64,000 nt of DNA from Candidatus Zixiibacteriota bacterium (lineage in GTDB: Bacteria; Desulfobacterota; Binatia; UBA9968). This document shows, one piece after another, positions 6,861-20,304 of the stretch. The position numbers were made by a program, and so were the translations under genes. Location: assembly GCA_035574315.1 (NCBI GenBank), contig DATLYW010000028.1:58654-122653 (forward strand), written 5' to 3'. Every line of letters begins with the position of its first letter. The stretch's first letter is position 1. The notes under the pieces were generated by a model. It was not told where the DNA came from. It saw only the letters and a program-made list of their open reading frames with translations, and made no database searches.

Positions 6861-9548
6861 TCAGCGCCGCGCCGCCGCTCTGGCTCCCGGCGCGGCAGGG
6901 GCGGCGGGCCGGCTCCCGTTTCCGCCGAGCGTCATCACGTAATCGCGCAGGGCTTCAATCTGCCTGTCGTCTTTGCCCCCCAGGATATTGTCCGGCCCTC
7001 CCGGGTAGAACGACGGCATCTTGGTACCCGGCTGGATCTTCTGCGGATCCTGCAACCATTTGAGAATCCAGGCCGGGTTGAGCCGCTGACGCGCCAGCGC
7101 CAGATCCGGCGCCCAGCCTTCCGGCGGCCCTTCCGGAGTCTTGCCGCCCTGCTGGTGGCAGCTGAAGCAGTTGAAATAGTCCCTGGAGGCGAGCACGCGG
7201 GCCGCTTCCAGATTCTCCCGTGGAATTTTCGTATCGTCAACCCAGGCGAAAGGAATTTCCACTTTGGACAACCCGTTGAAGTAGCTCACCAGCAGGTTCG
7301 CCTGAGGATCCGTGAAGCCGAACGTCGGCATCCTGATCTGGAGCCAGGGACGCAGCGGGACCGGCGACTTCAGGAACCCGAACAGCCAGTTCGACTGGAC
7401 CTTCTCGCCTTCGCCGTTGAGCGGCGGCGGCGCCGCCTCGGGAGCCTCGTAGTACTTCTTCACGAAGCCCCCGCGCTTCTCGATCTCGTGGCAGCCCACG
7501 CAATTGTAGAGCTGCACCAGCCGGCGGCCTTCGACCACCTGCACCACCCGCTGGCTCTGGTCCGCCAGGTAGCGCTCGCCGACCTTCTTTTCGCGGAATC
7601 CGGCGAGCAAAATCCGCAGCGCCCGGATGTCCTCGTCGGCGAGATTGAACTGCGGCATCACCTGCTCCACGCGCTCGGTGGCGTAGATGCGCGGCGTCTT
7701 GAGCTTGTTGTACGTCCAGTCGTCCCAGGTCGGCTTGATGTCGGTGCGGTTGCCGAAGAACAGCTCTTCGAGGGGCTTGGAGCCGAAGGTGGTGAGCTCG
7801 ACGCCGATGCGCGATTCCTTCTCCATTCCCTCGATGTCGTGGCAGCCGAAGCAGCCGTACTTGCGCACCAGCGACTCGCCGCGCTTGATGTTCCTGGCGT
7901 CGCTCAGCTGCTGCTCGATTCCGGGAATCGGCTCGGCCTTGCTGCCGAGGGTCGCAAGGTAGCTCGTGATCGCCAGCGCCTCGTCGTCCGTCAAGCGCAG
8001 GCTCGGCATCGCGGTGTCGGGCGCGAAGTCCTTGGGATTCTTGATCCAGTGGTAAATCCACCGCGGGTTGGTCTTCGACGCGATGTCCTTGAGATTGGGG
8101 ACCAGGTCTTTCTCCTTGCCGACGACGGTGGTGAACTCCCCTTCGGCGAATCCGTGGCAGCCCTTGCAGCCCACGGTCTCCACGAGCTTCTTGCCGCGCG
8201 CCGCCGCTGCGGCGTCGCCTTCACGGAAGGCGGCGGGCAGCGGATGCTGCTGCAGCCAGCTCTCCCCGTCGTCCTTCGACAGCGACCACAAGAACGCCGC
8301 GATCGCCACCGCCTCGTCGCGCTTGAGGTCGAAGTTCGGCATCCGGGTTCGCCGCCGGAACTTGTGCGGGTTTTCGATCCATCCCACCATCCAGCTCGGG
8401 TCGACCTTGGCGCTGATCCGTCGCAGGCTCGGGCCGATCTTGGGGATGTTCTCGTAGCCCTTGACCAGGTGGCATCCGGTGCAGCCGATCTGCTCGAAGA
8501 TCCTCTGCCCCTGAGCGAGCAGCGGAGCTTCCTGCTCGAACTTCTGCACGTCGAGATGGCAGGAAACGCAGCTCGACTGGGCTTTGGCGCCGCGCAAGAG
8601 CGGAAATTCCCAGAGCGGCACCTCGCCGTGGGCCTGCTTGACGCTGTTCACCGCCACGCCCTGCCCTTCGTGGCAGGAGGTGCACCCGAACTTTTCCGGG
8701 GGATGCGCGTTGTCGCCGAGCAGCGTCTCGCGCTTCGGGTGCGTCTTGAAGGGGTTCGGCTGGTCTTCGAAGCCGGGACGGTTGATCGCCAGGTGGCAGG
8801 TCTGGCAGCGGTCCACGCGCGCGATCGGCTGGTCGAAGCGGTTACGGTCGAATTCATCGAGCGAGACCTGCAGGATCTTCGGAATCCGGTAAAAGGAAAC
8901 CGGGCCCAGCTGGAAGGTGGCGTTCTCCATCACCCGCCGCCATTTGTCGCGTTCCGCGCTGAGCTTGGCGAGCTCGTCCTCCAGCTCCTTGACGCCCGCG
9001 TGGATCTTCTTGATCTCCTCCTTGATCCGCTCCCGCTTCGCTCGAGCCGCCGCCAGCTGCGGCTCGAGCTTCTGCTGCTCCTTTTCCAGCTCCCGAATCA
9101 CCTCGAGGTAGGGCTTGGGATTGCGCCGTTGCTGTACCGCGTGGTCGTGCTCGTACCAGGCCTCCTCCAGCTCGCTTTTGATGAACTTGACCTCCTGATC
9201 GATCTCCCGGAAGCGCACGTCGGCTTCCTTCTCCTGGCGCTCCAGGGCGGCGAGCCGCTCGGCCATCTGCCCCCGGGACAGGCTCGCCCTGGCCGCCGCG
9301 AGCTTCCTGGAAAGCTCCTGATACTTCGGCTCGGCCCGCAGCTTCTTGTCTTCCTCGTCGTAGGCCGCCTTTGCCTTGGCGTAATCGAGGCGGTAGAAAC
9401 GCGCCTGAAAAGCCTTCCACGGACGCCGCGTGATGTTGTCGTCCCAGAACGCCCAGAACGACAGCGCCACGAGCATGGCCACGCCGAGCACGAAGACGCT
9501 GCCGTACGATTTCTTTTCTTCCTGTGGATCGATCCCTCGTTCCGCCAT
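6861..9548 (-). CDS. Membrane-anchored octaheme cytochrome c with long coiled coil
   Basis: This 895-residue protein has one N-terminal membrane anchor (VFVLGVAMLVALSFWAFW, about 18-35). A charged heptad-rich coiled coil follows (about 60-215), then eight CxxCH heme c sites whose first Cys is at residues 248, 289, 327, 356, 461, 566, 683 and 794. The last five sites lie about 105-118 residues apart, each in a mono-heme cytochrome c-like domain carrying a candidate axial Met in an MPxF/MPSL-type motif. It occupies the place of cytochrome f or c1 in the operon, directly after the b subunits, so it is the likely electron outlet of the complex. The coiled coil between anchor and hemes is unusual. 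It may hold the heme string away from the membrane or mediate oligomers (inference). Confidence 0.9.
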   Translation of the reverse strand: MAERGIDPQEEKKSYGSVFVLGVAMLVALSFWAFWDDNITRRPWKAFQARFYRLDYAKAKAAYDEEDKKLRAEPKYQELSRKLAAARASLSRGQMAERLAALERQEKEADVRFREIDQEVKFIKSELEEAWYEHDHAVQQRRNPKPYLEVIRELEKEQQKLEPQLAAARAKRERIKEEIKKIHAGVKELEDELAKLSAERDKWRRVMENATFQLGPVSFYRIPKILQVSLDEFDRNRFDQPIARVDRCQTCHLAINRPGFEDQPNPFKTHPKRETLLGDNAHPPEKFGCTSCHEGQGVAVNSVKQAHGEVPLWEFPLLRGAKAQSSCVSCHLDVQKFEQEAPLLAQGQRIFEQIGCTGCHLVKGYENIPKIGPSLRRISAKVDPSWMVGWIENPHKFRRRTRMPNFDLKRDEAVAIAAFLWSLSKDDGESWLQQHPLPAAFREGDAAAAARGKKLVETVGCKGCHGFAEGEFTTVVGKEKDLVPNLKDIASKTNPRWIYHWIKNPKDFAPDTAMPSLRLTDDEALAITSYLATLGSKAEPIPGIEQQLSDARNIKRGESLVRKYGCFGCHDIEGMEKESRIGVELTTFGSKPLEELFFGNRTDIKPTWDDWTYNKLKTPRIYATERVEQVMPQFNLADEDIRALRILLAGFREKKVGERYLADQSQRVVQVVEGRRLVQLYNCVGCHEIEKRGGFVKKYYEAPEAAPPPLNGEGEKVQSNWLFGFLKSPVPLRPWLQIRMPTFGFTDPQANLLVSYFNGLSKVEIPFAWVDDTKIPRENLEAARVLASRDYFNCFSCHQQGGKTPEGPPEGWAPDLALARQRLNPAWILKWLQDPQKIQPGTKMPSFYPGGPDNILGGKDDRQIEALRDYVMTLGGNGSRPAAPAAPGARAAARR

Positions 9549-9557
9549 GCCCCCACC

Positions 9558-9725
9558 TCACGCCGCCCTGCGTTCGAGGGCGCGGCCCAAGGAAAAGACC
9601 CCGAGACCGATCAAGGTCAATACGATTTCTTCCGCCATCGAGAAATTCTTCATGACTCCCACGAACAGGGCGTAGCCGACGTCGGCGAGCCCCACGGCCT
9701 GCAAAATCTTGGCGAGGTAGAACAT
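9558..9725 (-). CDS. 55-residue membrane protein of the bc complex operon
   Basis: This short gene has an ATG at 9725 whose A is the last base of the preceding TGA (TGATG), and its stop lies 9 bp before the octaheme cytochrome start. The product begins MFYLAKILQAVGLADVGYAL and contains one or two hydrophobic segments (about 7-25 and 32-46), ending ERRAA. Its placement without gaps inside the operon, translational coupling and hydrophobic character argue that it is real. It could be a small structural subunit like the single-helix Pet proteins of cytochrome b6f, but no sequence family is recognised. Confidence 0.7.
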   Translation of the reverse strand: MFYLAKILQAVGLADVGYALFVGVMKNFSMAEEIVLTLIGLGVFSLGRALERRAA

Positions 9726-10492
9726 CAGATGTTAAGCCACGGCGTGACCAGGATGTACTTGACGTTGAAGGCCAGGCGCAGGAACATCTTGGCCGGCAGC
9801 GAAAGCATCAGGACGAACAGCACTGCGGTGATCGTGAAGCGCACCATGCCCCAGCGCTCGAGGAACTCCCGCCCCTTGACCCGCAGCACCCACCAATAGA
9901 AAAGCGCGATCCCGACGGCGAAGTAAACGGCGATCACGAACAGCCCGAACGCCGCCGACCACCAGTAGTCGCGGAACCCGAAGAGGTAGGGGAGATCGAC
10001 GTTGGTGAGCGCCACCACCTTGTGCGGGTCCCACCGCTGCCAGGGCCAGAAGAGGTTCCAGCCCGGACCGCGGAAAAACGTCCCGATGATGATCATCGTC
10101 ACCCAGAGCACATGGAAGCCGAAGACGAACGTGAGGATCTCGTACTTGCGCTCCTTGAAGCAGTAGTAGCCGTTGCCCTTGGGGTTGATGTCGATGAAGG
10201 GAATCACCATGAGACCGACGATGATCAGGCTCGGCAGCACGACGCCCGCGTGCCAGGGATCGAAATAGACCAGCATCTCCTGCAGCCCCAGGAAGTACCA
10301 CGGGGCCTTGGAGGGGTTGGGCGTGCGGGTGGGGTTCGCCGGCTCCTCGAGCGGCGCGTCGACCGTCATGGCCCACAGTGCGAGCACCACCATGACGAAC
10401 AGCGCCACGAGAAACTCCATCCGCACCAGGTGGGGCCAGGTGTGAATCTTGTCGTCGACGGGCAATCTTCTTTCGCGCGTGACCTCAGCCAT
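9725..10492 (-). CDS. Cytochrome b subunit IV-like protein (C-terminal half of cytochrome b)
   Basis: This 255-residue polytopic protein corresponds to petD/subunit IV and the C-terminal half of cytochrome b. It has TWPHLVRMEFLVALF (helix E region), the quinol-site motif as APWYFLGLQEMLVYFDPW in place of PEWY, and GLMVIPFIDINP. Two or three extra helices follow beyond the 160-residue plant-type subunit IV (LPYLFGFRDYWWSAAFGLF and after). It would form the quinol-oxidising pocket together with the b6 and Rieske subunits. It starts 22 bp after the b6 gene and overlaps the 55-residue gene by one base. Confidence 0.9.
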   Translation of the reverse strand: MAEVTRERRLPVDDKIHTWPHLVRMEFLVALFVMVVLALWAMTVDAPLEEPANPTRTPNPSKAPWYFLGLQEMLVYFDPWHAGVVLPSLIIVGLMVIPFIDINPKGNGYYCFKERKYEILTFVFGFHVLWVTMIIIGTFFRGPGWNLFWPWQRWDPHKVVALTNVDLPYLFGFRDYWWSAAFGLFVIAVYFAVGIALFYWWVLRVKGREFLERWGMVRFTITAVLFVLMLSLPAKMFLRLAFNVKYILVTPWLNI

Positions 10493-10514
10493 CGTCCTTT
10501 TCCTCGCGCCGGGG

Positions 10515-11285
10515 CTACAGAGGCGGCCCGGAGAATCCGTCCCTGCGAATGCGCCAGAAATGGACCGCCATCAGGATGCTGGCGACCAGCGGAATGAAAA
10601 TGCAGTGCAGGATGTAGAAGCGCAACAGCGTATGCGGCCCGATCTCGCCGCCCCCGAAGAGAAACGCCCGGGCGTCGTAGATCGGGTTGACGCCCACGAA
10701 CTCGGCGAACGGCCCCTCGTAGCCCAGCAGCGGCGTCGCCCGCGCCATATTGGAGCCGACGGTCACCGCCCAGATCGCGAGCTGGTCCCACGGCAGGAGA
10801 TAGCCCGTGAAGCTCAACAGGAGCGTGAGCACGAGCAGCAGCACGCCGACCACCCAGTTGAACTCGCGCGGCGGCTTGTAGGACCCGGTGAGAAACACCC
10901 GGAACATGTGGAGCCAGACGAACACCACCATCGCGTGCGCCGCCCAGCGGTGCATGTTGCGCATCAACATGCCGAAAGGCATGTCGAACTCGAGGTATTT
11001 CATGTCGGCGTAGGCGTACTCGGCGACCGGGCGGTAGTAGAACATCAGATAGATGCCGGTGACCACGGTGACGAGGAACATGAGAAACGTCAGCCCCCCC
11101 ATACACCAGGTGAATCGCATTCTCACCGCGTGGCGGCGGACCTTGGCGGGATGGAGGTGGAGAAAGACGTTGGAGGTCACCATCATGACGCGGTTGCGAG
11201 GCGTATCCTCGTAGCCGTGGCGAAAGATGGATTTCCACACCTGGCTCTCGACGACGTCGTTCTTGATCTTGTCAAAAATACCCAT
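10515..11285 (-). CDS. Cytochrome b6-type subunit (N-terminal half of split cytochrome b)
   Basis: This 256-residue protein has four membrane helices with two pairs of heme b ligands: MHRWAAHAMVVFVWLHMF (helix B) and a matching pair of His in LRFYILHCIFIPLVASILMAVHF (helix D). SFTGYLLPWDQLAIWAVTVG is a classic b6/b motif. FTWCMGGLTF aligns with the FYCLGG region of cytochrome b6, whose Cys35 binds the extra heme c(i). This suggests a b6f-like rather than bc1-like core. It sits between the Rieske and subunit IV genes in the conserved order. Confidence 0.93.
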   Translation of the reverse strand: MGIFDKIKNDVVESQVWKSIFRHGYEDTPRNRVMMVTSNVFLHLHPAKVRRHAVRMRFTWCMGGLTFLMFLVTVVTGIYLMFYYRPVAEYAYADMKYLEFDMPFGMLMRNMHRWAAHAMVVFVWLHMFRVFLTGSYKPPREFNWVVGVLLLVLTLLLSFTGYLLPWDQLAIWAVTVGSNMARATPLLGYEGPFAEFVGVNPIYDARAFLFGGGEIGPHTLLRFYILHCIFIPLVASILMAVHFWRIRRDGFSGPPL

Positions 11286-11295
11286 GGGTGTACCG

Positions 11296-11811
11296 TCAAA
11301 CCTTGAGGATGCTGTCGGCGTGCTGCTCGTCGGGCTCGACGCCGGGATTCATCTTGAAAACCTTGCTCTTGTCGACCACGAGCTGCCCGTCCTCGCCGAT
11401 GGTGACCTTGAAGCGATCGAGCGGCCGCGGTGCCGGCCCTTCGAAGTTCAGGCCCGATTTGAAAAAGCCGCTGCCGTGGCAGGGGCACTTGAACTTGTTT
11501 TCCGCCGCCAGCCAGCGGGGGGTGCAGCCGAGGTGGGTGCACTTGGCGAAGATGGCGTAGATCCCGGATTCCTCGCGAACGATCCAGACCCGCTGCTCCT
11601 GCTTGTATTTCTCGCTCACCTCCCCGATGGCGTAGTCCGAGGGGAACCCCGCCTTGAACGTGCTCGGCGGCTGGAAGAGAACCCGCGGAAAAGCGGAGCG
11701 AACGAAACCCAGCAGGCTCAACCCTCCGAAGACTCCGAATCCGCCCCAACCGAGCCGCGTGAAGAAATCCCGCCGAGACCAGATACCGCGCTTGACCTTT
11801 TCCTCTGCCAT
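11296..11811 (-). CDS. Rieske [2Fe-2S] iron-sulfur protein
   Basis: This 171-residue protein has an N-terminal twin-arginine-like segment (SRRDFFTRLGWGGFGVFGGLSLLGF) that can act as Tat signal and membrane anchor. The Rieske cluster site follows: Cys91-Thr-His93 in CTHLGC, and Cys109 with His112 in CPCHGS. The remaining cysteines, Cys96 and Cys111, form the usual disulfide. It takes one electron from quinol and passes it to the cytochrome c partner. Spacing is 10 bp to the b6 gene and 6 bp from the upstream small membrane protein gene. Confidence 0.95.
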   Translation of the reverse strand: MAEEKVKRGIWSRRDFFTRLGWGGFGVFGGLSLLGFVRSAFPRVLFQPPSTFKAGFPSDYAIGEVSEKYKQEQRVWIVREESGIYAIFAKCTHLGCTPRWLAAENKFKCPCHGSGFFKSGLNFEGPAPRPLDRFKVTIGEDGQLVVDKSKVFKMNPGVEPDEQHADSILKV

Positions 11812-11817
11812 GAACGC

Positions 11818-12165
11818 TTACCTTTTGAGCCAGCTAATCAACGCTCCCCAAACGACGAAAAAGACGCCGCCGGCCATCAACATGAGGCCGACCGGCCCGA
11901 AAACGAACGACAGACCCGCCCCCAGACAAAAGATCAAGACCCCTGTACCCAGCGGATTGAACGGAGCCGGCGCTGTTCCCGCGACGCTTCCGCCACCCTC
12001 GGGTTCGTGAATCAGCTCCTCGCGGATGAGGGTGAACGCCAGCTCCTTGAGATCTTCCCGCCGTCGCGGATCACCGCGTTGAATCAGGCGGCCGATCTCC
12101 TGAGCGAGCTTTTCAATCTCTTGTTCACGCGCTTGCTGCGCGAGGTCGGGAGGGTCGGGTGCCAC
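11818..12165 (-). CDS. Small two-helix membrane protein, first gene of the bc operon
   Basis: This 115-residue protein (GTG start at 12165) has an acidic/basic helical N-terminus (about 1-50, EIEKLAQEIGRLIQRGDPRR) and two membrane helices (about 70-90 and 92-112) ending WLKR. It is not a family I recognise. It lies 6 bp upstream of the Rieske gene and downstream of a plausible promoter, so it probably belongs to the complex or assists its assembly. Confidence that it is a gene is good; the function is unknown. Confidence 0.65.
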   Translation of the reverse strand: MAPDPPDLAQQAREQEIEKLAQEIGRLIQRGDPRRREDLKELAFTLIREELIHEPEGGGSVAGTAPAPFNPLGTGVLIFCLGAGLSFVFGPVGLMLMAGGVFFVVWGALISWLKR

Positions 12166-12182
12166 TCAGATTAAATTTGGTG

Positions 12183-12209
12183 ATTATTATAGAAACAGCC
12201 CTTTGTCAA
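12183..12209 (-). promoter_or_regulatory. Putative sigma-70-like promoter of the bc-complex operon
   Basis: In an AT-rich patch that stands out from its surroundings, the minus strand has TTGACA (12209-12204) and TATAAT (12191-12186). The spacer between those exact hexamers is only 12 bp; a shifted -10 (AATAAT, 12188-12183) gives 15 bp. It lies 20-45 bp upstream of the GTG at 12165. Confidence 0.4.
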
Positions 12210-12234
12210 CCACCGGTCCCCCGCATAACCTGCT

Positions 12235-12717
12235 TCATTTGCTCAATAAAACCACTGCGAAGGCGGCCATCCCCTTGCCCGCGCCGAGCGCGCCGAGCTT
12301 TTCCGGCGTGGCGGCCTTGAGGTTGACCGCGCCCGGCCGCGTCCCGAGCAAGGCCGCGATTTTCTTCCTCATCGCCGGATAGTACGGCGCCAGCCGCGGT
12401 CCCTGGGCGAGCACCGTCACGTCCAGGTTGACCACCCGAAACCGCTTCCGCTTCATCATCGAGGTAACGGATCTCAGCAGCTCGGTGCTCGCGATTCCCT
12501 CGGTCCGGGAATCGCTGTCCGGAAAATGGAGGCCGATGTCGCCTTCCCCCATCGCGCCCAGCACCGCGTTCATGACCGCGTGCAGCACCACGTCGGCGTC
12601 GGAGTGGCCTGAAAGCCCCCGCGGATAGGGAATCTCGACGCCGCCCAGAACCAGCCGGCGCCGCGGCGCGAAGCGGTGGACGTCGACGCCGTGCCCGATA
12701 CGAAGCTGAAGCGTCAT
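12235..12717 (-). CDS. ispF: 2-C-methyl-D-erythritol 2,4-cyclodiphosphate synthase
   Basis: This 160-residue enzyme of the MEP isoprenoid pathway converts CDP-methylerythritol 2-phosphate to the cyclodiphosphate with release of CMP. Visible motifs are RIGHGVDVHRF with the metal ligands Asp and His, GHSDADVVLHAVMNAVLGA, GDIGLHFPD and the C-terminal KAATPEKLGALGAGKG. The open frame extends to 13569, but everything upstream of the ATG at 12717 is antisense to the DUF3750 gene, and family alignment fixes this start. No ispD is visible beside it. Confidence 0.95.
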   Translation of the reverse strand: MTLQLRIGHGVDVHRFAPRRRLVLGGVEIPYPRGLSGHSDADVVLHAVMNAVLGAMGEGDIGLHFPDSDSRTEGIASTELLRSVTSMMKRKRFRVVNLDVTVLAQGPRLAPYYPAMRKKIAALLGTRPGAVNLKAATPEKLGALGAGKGMAAFAVVLLSK

Positions 12718-19138: not shown

Positions 19139-19174
19139 AAAAAAAGGCCCGATCCGGACGCCGGATCGGGCCTT
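19139..19174 (-). terminator. Intrinsic terminator after the peroxiredoxin-glutaredoxin operon
   Basis: A perfect 14-bp stem (AAGGCCCGATCCGG at 19144-19157 and its complement at 19161-19174) with a three-base loop is followed on the minus strand by a run of seven T residues (19145-19139). It lies 28 bp after the glutaredoxin stop. Confidence 0.88.
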
Positions 19175-19201: not shown

Positions 19202-19441
19202 CTAGAGGAACTTTTCCACGAGATAGCGGTTGATCTCTTCCGCGCCGGCGAGCGGCTTGCCGTCGATCACCAGCACGGGAACGGTTTTTGCGCCGGTCAG
19301 CGCAACCAGCTCCTTTTCGAATTCCGGGTTCTCACGAATGTTCTTCTTGACGACCCGGTCCTCGATCCTCAAGTTCGTGACGCAGTTCAAAACGCTTTGA
19401 GAAAAGCCGCACTCGGGGTAGAAGTAAAGTTCCAGTGCCAC
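19202..19441 (-). CDS. Monothiol glutaredoxin-like protein (CGFS)
   Basis: This 79-residue thioredoxin-fold protein has ELYFYPECGFSQSVLNCV (active site Cys11-Gly-Phe-Ser), the cis-Pro motif TVPVLVIDG and a C-terminal LAGAEEINRYL helix. The GTG start follows immediately after the TAG stop of the peroxiredoxin gene, so the pair is one operon. It could reduce the oxidised peroxiredoxin, as glutaredoxin-Prx pairs do elsewhere. The CGFS motif is more usual in iron-sulfur carriers, but the protein is shorter than GrxD and resembles NrdH/Grx-like redox partners. The functional link is inferred from context. Confidence 0.85.
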   Translation of the reverse strand: MALELYFYPECGFSQSVLNCVTNLRIEDRVVKKNIRENPEFEKELVALTGAKTVPVLVIDGKPLAGAEEINRYLVEKFL

Positions 19442-19918
19442 CTACTTGCTCGACGCGTTGATCTTTTGGCACTCCGCGAGAAGCTCTTTCGGATTCCGCT
19501 CGCCCGCCGGCGTAACCGATACCGCGTAGCGCACGATTCCTTGCTTGTCGATGATGACCGTGGCCCGGTCGGCGATGCCCTTGTCCTCGAGATAAACGCC
19601 GTATTTCTTCGCTACTTCGCCTTTGGGATGAAAATCCTGCAGCAGCGGGAACGAAACTCCGCCGAGGGATTTGGCCCAGTTGTCGTGGGAGAACCGGCTG
19701 TCGACGCTCACACCCAAGACTTGGGTGTCACAGGCCTTGAACTCGTCCAGCAGGGACTGCAGGCCCGGGATCTCCCGGCTTCAGGTGGGCGTCCAGTCCA
19801 GCGGGTAGAACACGAGCATGACGTTTTTCTGCCCTTTGAACTGGCTGAGCGTGAACTTGGTTCCCCCGAGATGGCTTACCAGCTCAAAATCGGGCGCGGG
19901 TTTTCCGACTTCGATCAT
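19442..19918 (-). CDS. Selenocysteine-containing peroxiredoxin (in-frame TGA at the peroxidatic position)
   Basis: Two open pieces (19918-19784 and 19780-19442) are in the same frame, separated only by one TGA at 19783-19781. Read through, they make a complete 158-residue BCP/AhpC-TSA peroxiredoxin. The TGA is codon 46 and falls exactly on the peroxidatic cysteine of the universal P-x-x-x-T-x-x-C motif (PLDWTPT then TGA, then SREIPGLQSLLDEF). The conserved VLGVSVDS and DRATVIIDKQG motifs follow with no other damage. This is the pattern of selenocysteine peroxiredoxins, which reduce hydroperoxides. The ATG at 19918 has AGGAGG nine bases upstream. A strictly standard reading would give a truncated 45-residue peptide. 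Confidence 0.85.
19745..19780 (-). promoter_or_regulatory. Candidate bacterial SECIS region downstream of the TGA
   Basis: The 36 nt after the TGA are GC-rich and can fold. A CCGGG/CCCGG hairpin with an AGAU loop spans nt 4-16. GGG/CCC (nt 15-17 with 26-28) can enclose an 8-nt loop at nt 18-25, which is in the distance range known for bacterial SECIS apical loops. The exact fold is uncertain by eye. Confidence 0.35.
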
Positions 19919-20304
19919 GACGATCGTTCCTCCTTGTACCATGGGATCTCGAACGAACTCCTGAAAAGTTTCCCTTGCCGACTTCCGCCGCACCGGCCCG
20001 TCTGCGGCTCCCGGCGCGGTCAGCGGCGCCCGGCATTCAACGTCCGACCGCTCGCACCACTGCCGGACGACGTGGGCAGGCCAGCGTCCGGAGTCCGGCG
20101 TCCAATGTCCGATGTCTCTTGTTCGTGCCGGCCTCCGGTCCTCGGTCTTCGGTCATTCCATCTCGAACCGCCGCGGCGCTGCAGCCCGAGCAACCGTGAT
20201 GCGGCATCTGCATGAGCTCGCTGACGGCGTGTTCACTATAACCAAAAGCCGGCGGTTTTCAAACATCGCCCGCGCATCGAGAAGATTTCTTTCCGCCGGG
20301 CCGG
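19919..20304. other. Non-coding gap with degenerate GTCCG-type repeats
   Basis: There is no convincing gene in this stretch between the peroxiredoxin start and the Nudix gene. Between about 20030 and 20160 short imperfect units recur (AACGTCCGA, GCGTCCGGAGTCCGGCGTCC, AATGTCCGATGTC, CGGTCCTCGGTCTTCGGTC). The part next to 19919 must hold the peroxiredoxin promoter, but no clear -35/-10 pair is visible. Confidence 0.4.

What the first reader, a model, noticed from the sequence alone, without database searches (positions are those of the whole stretch)
19442..19918. Peroxiredoxin with TGA at the peroxidatic cysteine: probable selenoprotein
The frame is intact on both sides of a single TGA that sits at codon 46, exactly where the universal PxxxTxxC active site needs Cys. 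All other conserved motifs are present. A random nonsense mutation would rarely hit that one residue and leave everything else clean. If the host decodes UGA as Sec, the organism has a selenocysteine antioxidant enzyme paired with a CGFS glutaredoxin.
Basis: partly seen in the sequence, partly recalled or inferred. Interest (0 to 1): 0.75.

Follow-up and report, generated by a model that had tools for sequence, protein, structure and literature searches.

The report
Selenium peroxiredoxin with paired glutaredoxin-like protein
A peroxiredoxin gene in an unnamed bacterium carries a UGA codon exactly where its catalytic cysteine should be, and is predicted to make a selenium-containing, peroxide-removing enzyme that is likely recharged by the glutaredoxin-like protein encoded next to it.

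Summary
Confirmed. A 158-residue peroxiredoxin frame (19918-19442, minus strand) has one TGA, at codon 46, in the peroxidatic position. All 16 distinct orthologous loci examined keep this TGA, and codons after it are under purifying selection. mRNA structure at +15 to +53 from the UGA exceeds synonymous-codon shuffles in Sec genes (mean z -2.06, n=16), not in Cys homologues (+0.31, n=19). The window gene misses the strict bSECIS loop rule. Closest solved relative: the 1-Cys peroxiredoxin AhpE. A monothiol glutaredoxin-like gene follows; in 35 genomes of the order it occurs in 8, each time beside this Prx, and it is adjacent or fused in 13 of 16 loci. Sec-peroxiredoxins are a known selenoprotein family; the paired or fused partner is the less familiar part. 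Selenium insertion and the Grx reaction are inferred, not measured.

The parts
19442..19918 (-). Peroxiredoxin gene, predicted selenoprotein, 158 residues, AhpE-like
19781..19783 (-). UGA codon 46, predicted selenocysteine at the peroxidatic position (T43-P-T-U46)
19730..19768 (-). Predicted bSECIS-like hairpin; apical loop CUGCU 27 nt after the UGA; z -2.9 against synonymous-codon shuffles, but the 54-nt stretch from the UGA has z -0.38 against dinucleotide shuffles
19202..19441 (-). Glutaredoxin-like gene (GTG start, CGFS motif), predicted reductant of the peroxiredoxin
19147..19165 (-). Intrinsic-terminator-like stem with T run after the glutaredoxin-like gene, likely end of the two-gene unit
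   Evidence: consensus match only; 3 found in the region, 2.1 expected from shuffles
20235..20262 (-). Sigma-70-like promoter match (10 of 12) upstream of the peroxiredoxin gene
   Evidence: consensus match only; 1 found, 0.1 expected from shuffles

Best explanation
This is predicted to be a selenocysteine-containing, AhpE-like peroxiredoxin whose UGA codon 46 would be read as selenocysteine, and whose oxidised selenium is likely reduced by the glutaredoxin-like protein encoded directly after it. Shown: the UGA sits at the peroxidatic position; it is conserved in 16 of 16 orthologous loci; the sequence after it is under purifying selection; the genome carries selA, selB, selC (tRNA-Sec) and selD; the glutaredoxin-like gene is adjacent in 12 of those 16 loci and fused in one. 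Inferred: SelB and Sec-tRNA(Sec) would decode the UGA with help of a hairpin about 27 nt downstream; the selenolate would attack H2O2 or organic peroxides to give a selenenic acid. Because no cysteine other than position 46 is conserved in all orthologues, that acid would then be resolved from outside, by glutathione and the monothiol Grx-like protein, much as AhpE is resolved by mycothiol and mycoredoxin-1. The genome has genes for both steps of glutathione synthesis. Separate odds: selenoprotein 0.97; Grx-like protein as the main reductant about 0.65.
For: Machinery: SelB 399.5 bits over the cut-off; SelA 596 and SelD 390 bits over the cut-offs; SelD has its own UGA in KAAGUAAK; tRNA-Sec 77 bits with TCA anticodon. 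UGA is still a stop here: 8 of 13 ORFs that I picked by eye near the finding end in TGA. Conservation: 9 of 9 hits at E < 1e-70 among 35 genomes of the order, both hits at E <= 1e-50 among 395 genomes of the phylum (one of the two is the window itself), and 6 further loci, five labelled SAR324 and one Deltaproteobacteria, have TGA. In the protein collection, of the 120 relatives listed (of 1455 found) 43 have W at position 46 and 1 has G (UGA read by another code, inferred), 67 begin after it, 7 have Cys, 2 a gap. Structure excess at +15: mean z -2.06 (16 Sec genes) and -2.02 (18 Sec paralogues) against +0.31 (19 Cys homologues); z at or below -1.4 in 12 of 16 against 1 of 19; Mann-Whitney p 6e-6, and 0.007 with hand-picked representatives, 10 against 6. 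Fold: AlphaFold2 pLDDT 97; ranks 1-8 of the Foldseek PDB matches are all AhpE. Partner: Grx-like gene (E <= 1e-6) in 8 of 35 genomes, always beside the Prx, which is in 9 (Fisher p 3.8e-7, printed before that script failed; genomes are related, so the p is too small); adjacent or fused in 13 of 16 loci. Fusions: L110 (UGA), P0052, P0067, P0122. GshB and GCS2-type GshA present.
Against: No protein or selenium measurement exists. The window gene's hairpin breaks the G-in-first-two-loop-bases rule; the strict model was met in only 5 of 15 loci of this type. RNAalifold found no common structure for the 15 sequences or the 9 of the family. The window stretch is not stronger than dinucleotide shuffles (z -0.38). 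In 4 of 16 Sec genes (L030, L031, L032, L110) the z at +15 is above -1, and other offsets also dip (class A -1.24 at -33; class B -1.2 to -1.6 at +39 to +51). AhpE leads the fold search by a small margin: human Prx I follows at rank 9. Cys150 occurs in 12 of 16 orthologues, so an internal resolving cysteine is not excluded for most. 3 of 16 loci (L034, L063, L064) have no Grx-like gene in the fetched DNA; for L034's genome, G027, none was found genome-wide at E <= 1e-6.
Confidence: 0.88

Rival explanations
1. It is a selenoprotein, but it is recharged mainly by thioredoxin, with Cys150 as resolving residue, and the Grx-like gene has another task.
For: Cys150 is present in 12 of 16 orthologues; PrxU, the best NCBIfam hit, is named thioredoxin-dependent.
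Against: Cys150 is missing in L028, L029, L034 and L065, three of which (all but L034) keep the Grx-like gene. Co-occurrence and natural fusions with the Grx-like domain.
Confidence: 0.25
2. The TGA is a nonsense mutation or sequencing error in a pseudogene.
For: One in-frame TGA alone would look like this.
Against: The same TGA in 16 of 16 distinct loci and purifying selection after it.
Confidence: 0.01
3. UGA is reassigned, or read as tryptophan by suppression, in this organism.
For: Collections translate 43 of 120 listed relatives with W here.
Against: 8 of 13 ORFs checked end in TGA; the tRNA-Trp that came up has CCA (no genome-wide tRNA scan was run); tRNA-Sec and SelA, SelB, SelD are present; Trp would not be expected to catalyse at this site (general knowledge).
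Confidence: 0.01
4. The UGA is a selenium-dependent switch whose truncated product also matters.
For: UGA termination competes with Sec insertion in general (recalled, not tested).
Against: The 45-residue N-terminal piece lacks most of the fold; separate selection on it was not tested.
Confidence: 0.03

Closest known systems
Sec-containing peroxiredoxin (TxxU), a bacterial selenoprotein family characterised from Eubacterium acidaminophilum (reference title seen; the name PrxU for it is recalled)
   Same: Pfam AhpC-TSA fold, predicted Sec at the peroxidatic position, TxxU motif (T43-P-T-U46). 91 members in 78 organisms in a 2016 survey (PMC5029168, table passage) and 253 in ocean samples (PMC2398784, table passage).
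   Different: Scores 97 bits against the NCBIfam PrxU equivalog, cut-off 270; AhpE-like instead; has a paired glutaredoxin-like gene.
AhpE of Mycobacterium tuberculosis (1-Cys peroxiredoxin)
   Same: Best sequence match in the PDB (104 bits) and best fold match (top two: TM 0.91-0.94, rmsd 1.2-1.3 A); a glutaredoxin-like partner, mycoredoxin-1, reduces AhpE (PMC4360819, passage).
   Different: AhpE has Cys and uses mycothiol; here UGA, with glutathione synthesis genes in the genome, and the partner gene is adjacent. Human Prx I is almost as close in fold (rank 9).
Peroxiredoxin-glutaredoxin hybrid of Haemophilus influenzae
   Same: Prx and Grx domains in one chain, as in L110, P0052, P0067 and P0122.
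   Different: A Cys enzyme of another Prx subfamily (both recalled; only the search listing of PMC1361801 was seen).

Membership tests
Peroxiredoxin (AhpC/TSA) | Profile match over the curated cut-off and the PxxxTxxC/U plus Arg active site | tested here: met
   134 bits against 26; T43, position 46 and R118 invariant in 16 orthologues; Pro39 in 15 of 16
Bacterial selenoprotein | In-frame UGA aligned with the catalytic Cys of homologues | tested here: met
Bacterial selenoprotein | SelA, SelB, SelD and tRNA-Sec in the same genome | tested here: met
Bacterial selenoprotein | bSECIS by the published model (loop 3-9 nt, G in first two loop bases, 16-37 nt from UGA) | tested here: not met
   Window gene: loop length and distance fit, the G rule does not. 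The model was read in PMC13188914 section 5, which says that a subset of selenoprotein genes fails it
Bacterial selenoprotein | Excess mRNA structure just after the UGA, absent from Cys homologues | tested here: met
   (against dinucleotide shuffles the window stretch alone gives z -0.38)
Bacterial selenoprotein | Selenium in the protein | not testable with these tools
   needs labelling or mass spectrometry
PrxU (NF040737) | Score over the curated cut-off | tested here: not met
   97.3 against 270 bits
AhpE-type 1-Cys peroxiredoxin | Closest fold and sequence; no conserved resolving Cys | tested here: inconclusive
   Closest match yes, by a small margin in fold; no Cys invariant besides position 46, but Cys150 in 12 of 16; no AhpE model among the NCBIfam or Pfam hits
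Glutaredoxin fold (19202-19441) | Pfam Glutaredoxin over the cut-off | tested here: met
   38.7 against 22.9 bits
CGFS monothiol glutaredoxin (Grx4, TIGR00365) | Score over the curated cut-off | tested here: not met
   23.5 against 117.1 bits; the motif varies between loci: CGFS, CGFC, CAFS
Uxx-star glutaredoxin-like (seleno)protein (NF041212) | Score over the curated cut-off | tested here: not met
   23 against 66 bits

The most novel reading that the evidence does not exclude
A dedicated two-part selenium peroxidase: a one-selenocysteine AhpE-type peroxiredoxin with its own monothiol glutaredoxin-like reductase, inherited as a gene pair in this bacterial family and in some SAR324-labelled genomes and fused into a single chain in others, so that a Sec-peroxiredoxin carries its reductant with it.
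Probability: 0.5. Interest if true: 0.55.

Novelty: new variant of a known kind. Interest (0 to 1): 0.45.

Why it matters
It turns a UGA that public collections seem to read as a stop, as Trp or as Gly into a well-supported predicted selenoenzyme, in a genome where six AhpC/TSA-fold proteins carry a UGA at the active site. The linked and fused Grx-like partner makes directly testable how a one-selenocysteine peroxiredoxin is recycled.

Tried and rejected
Pseudogene or sequencing error: rejected by conservation and selection. UGA reassignment: rejected. Membership in PrxU, Grx4 or the Uxx-star family: below cut-offs. A common consensus structure by RNAalifold: none for the 15 sequences of this type or the 9 of the family; weak ones only in subsets and in the paralogous type. 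Rfam on the window: nothing at gathering scores. Strict bSECIS rule: 5 of 15 loci of this type and 10 of 20 other Sec loci (no Cys control was run for it). Naming the organism: not possible. Relatives in the same family have Prx translations identical to those of MAGs labelled Deltaproteobacteria, Candidatus Binatia and Syntrophobacter sp. SbD2; I could not check those labels.

Searches for prior reports of a Sec-Prx with a paired or fused glutaredoxin: (capped listings), and passages. I saw none. The ocean selenoprotein paper reports a Prx-PP2C phosphatase fusion. That library lacks most subscription papers, and supplements could not be read. No paper was read whole: PMC13188914 passages and section 5; PMC5029168, PMC9312934, PMC2398784, PMC1088965, PMC1794560, PMC9999580, PMC8366655 and PMC4360819 passages only; PMC1361801 listing only.

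Full report
What is there. On the minus strand, 19918-19442, an ATG...TAG frame encodes a 158-residue AhpC/TSA protein with one in-frame TGA at codon 46 (19783-19781), inside FYPLDWTPT-U-SREIPG. A Shine-Dalgarno-like AAGGAGG lies just upstream (seen in the sequence). The next gene, 19441-19202, starts on the base after the stop and encodes a 79-residue glutaredoxin-fold protein with CGFS. A terminator-like stem follows at 19165-19147, and a promoter-like match lies at 20262-20235 (consensus matches only).

Can the organism make selenocysteine? Yes, as far as genes tell. SelB scores 399.5 bits, SelA 596 and SelD 390, all over the curated cut-offs. The three genes lie in a row in L026, minus strand: SelD 7835 to about 8890 (start inferred), SelB 8908-10839, SelA 11003-12595. 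SelD itself has a UGA in KAAGUAAK, which I take as its catalytic position from general knowledge of SelD. A tRNA-Sec with TCA anticodon scores 77 bits against the gathering score of 47. UGA remains a stop: 8 of 13 ORFs that I picked by eye around the finding end in it.

Is the UGA conserved? 35 genomes of the order gave nine hits at E < 1e-70, and all nine have one TGA. 395 genomes drawn from the phylum gave two hits at E <= 1e-50, the window and G111, both with TGA. A scan of genome contigs gave 40 loci: 12 have U at the site (11 of this type, and L079), 28 have Cys (my count). After dropping five loci identical in translated sequence to loci already held (L056-L060), 16 distinct loci of this type remain: the window, eight of the order, G111 (L110), and six others labelled SAR324 (five) or Deltaproteobacteria (one). 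16 of 16 have TGA. Against eight orthologues, codons after the UGA show pS 0.56-0.76 and pN 0.09-0.18, so the downstream part is selected as protein. In the protein collection, of the 120 relatives listed (1455 were found at E <= 1e-20) 43 have Trp and one Gly at this position, which I read as UGA translated by other codes; 67 begin after it, seven have Cys, two a gap. So Cys forms exist; one, P0006, is 87% identical to the window protein over 73% of it.

Is there a SECIS? The published bacterial model asks for a 3-9 nt loop, G in its first two bases, 16-37 nt from the UGA, and says that a subset of genes does not fit (PMC13188914, section 5). The window gene folds into a hairpin at +15 to +53, counted from the first base of the UGA, with loop CUGCU 27 nt after the UGA: length and distance fit, the G is third. 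A strict scan passes 5 of 15 loci of this type (L110 was not in it). RNAalifold gives no common structure for the 15 sequences or the 9 of the family, and the window stretch is not stronger than dinucleotide shuffles (z -0.38). A better-controlled test kept protein and codon usage fixed: the 39-nt window at +15 has mean z -2.06 in the 16 Sec genes of this type (window gene -2.9), -2.02 in 18 Sec genes of a paralogous type (FTGG-U; three duplicates dropped, L020, L021 and L079 not included), and +0.31 in 19 Cys homologues (19 of the 28 Cys loci, those that fitted the active-site pattern). 12 of 16 against 1 of 19 lie at or below -1.4. Mann-Whitney p is 6e-6, or 0.007 for hand-picked representatives, 10 against 6. 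The loci are related, so the first p is too small. Four of the 16 (L030, L031, L032, L110) show no clear excess, and other offsets dip too: -1.24 at -33 in this type, -1.2 to -1.6 at +39 to +51 in the paralogous type. I take this as good evidence for a SelB-binding hairpin in the family, not proof for this gene.

What enzyme? AlphaFold2 gives pLDDT 97. Ranks 1-8 of the Foldseek PDB matches are AhpE of M. tuberculosis (TM up to 0.94), with human Prx I close behind at rank 9; AhpE also leads by sequence (104 bits). In 16 orthologues the only position with Cys (here UGA) throughout is 46; Cys150 is in 12, Cys63 in 7. So the protein is best read as a one-selenocysteine peroxiredoxin, though a role for Cys150 is not excluded. 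The best NCBIfam hit, PrxU, is far below its cut-off.

What recharges it? The Grx-like gene is found at E <= 1e-6 in 8 of 35 genomes of the order, on the same contig and strand within about 200 nt of the Prx each time; the Prx is in 9 (Fisher p 3.8e-7, without correction for relatedness). In the 16 loci it is adjacent in 12 and fused in one (L110), absent from the fetched DNA in L034, L063 and L064. The collection holds further fusions with a Pfam glutaredoxin domain: P0052 (CGFC), P0067 and P0122; P0048 and P0097 have Cys at position 46 and what looks by eye like a degenerate second domain. Across the Grx-like domains with the motif only its first Cys is kept (CGFS, CGFC, CAFS, CGPS, CGHS). 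GshB and a GCS2-type GshA are in the genome. AhpE is reduced by the glutaredoxin-like mycoredoxin-1 (PMC4360819, passage), so the same chemistry here is a reasonable inference.

Known or new? Sec-peroxiredoxin is an established family: 91 in 78 organisms (PMC5029168, table passage), 253 in ocean samples (PMC2398784, table passage), 43 in the Sargasso Sea (PMC1088965, passage). This gene is an AhpE-like branch of it. I saw no report of its coupling to a glutaredoxin-like partner in the searches named under Tried and rejected.

Noticed in passing
L098, L099, L100, L102, L104, L105 (window's own genome): 6 of the 12 AhpC/TSA-family matches over the cut-off carry a UGA, each at the active-site position (TPTU, TGGU, TFVU, SPTU, WUPKC, AULPC), so this genome is predicted to be rich in Sec redox proteins.
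   Followed up: partly
L026:7835-8890 (-): SelD is itself predicted to be a selenoprotein (KAAGUAAK); selA, selB and selD lie in a row, with tRNA-Sec about 17 kb from selD on the same contig.
   Followed up: yes
P0003-P0122: Of the 120 relatives listed from the public protein collection, 67 start after the UGA and 43 have Trp and 1 Gly at the Sec position, apparently an annotation artefact.
   Followed up: partly
L018, L035-L054: A second Sec-peroxiredoxin type (FYPLDFTGG-U) in the same order shows the same structure excess after the UGA (18 distinct loci) and an RNAalifold stem of 7 pairs.
   Followed up: partly
P0006: A relative 87% identical to the window protein over 73% of it has Cys at position 46, a candidate recent Sec/Cys exchange; its predicted start lies inside the motif, so the record may be faulty.
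   Followed up: no
L061, frame from 2336 (+): A second Grx-like frame lies upstream of this SAR324-labelled peroxiredoxin.
   Followed up: no
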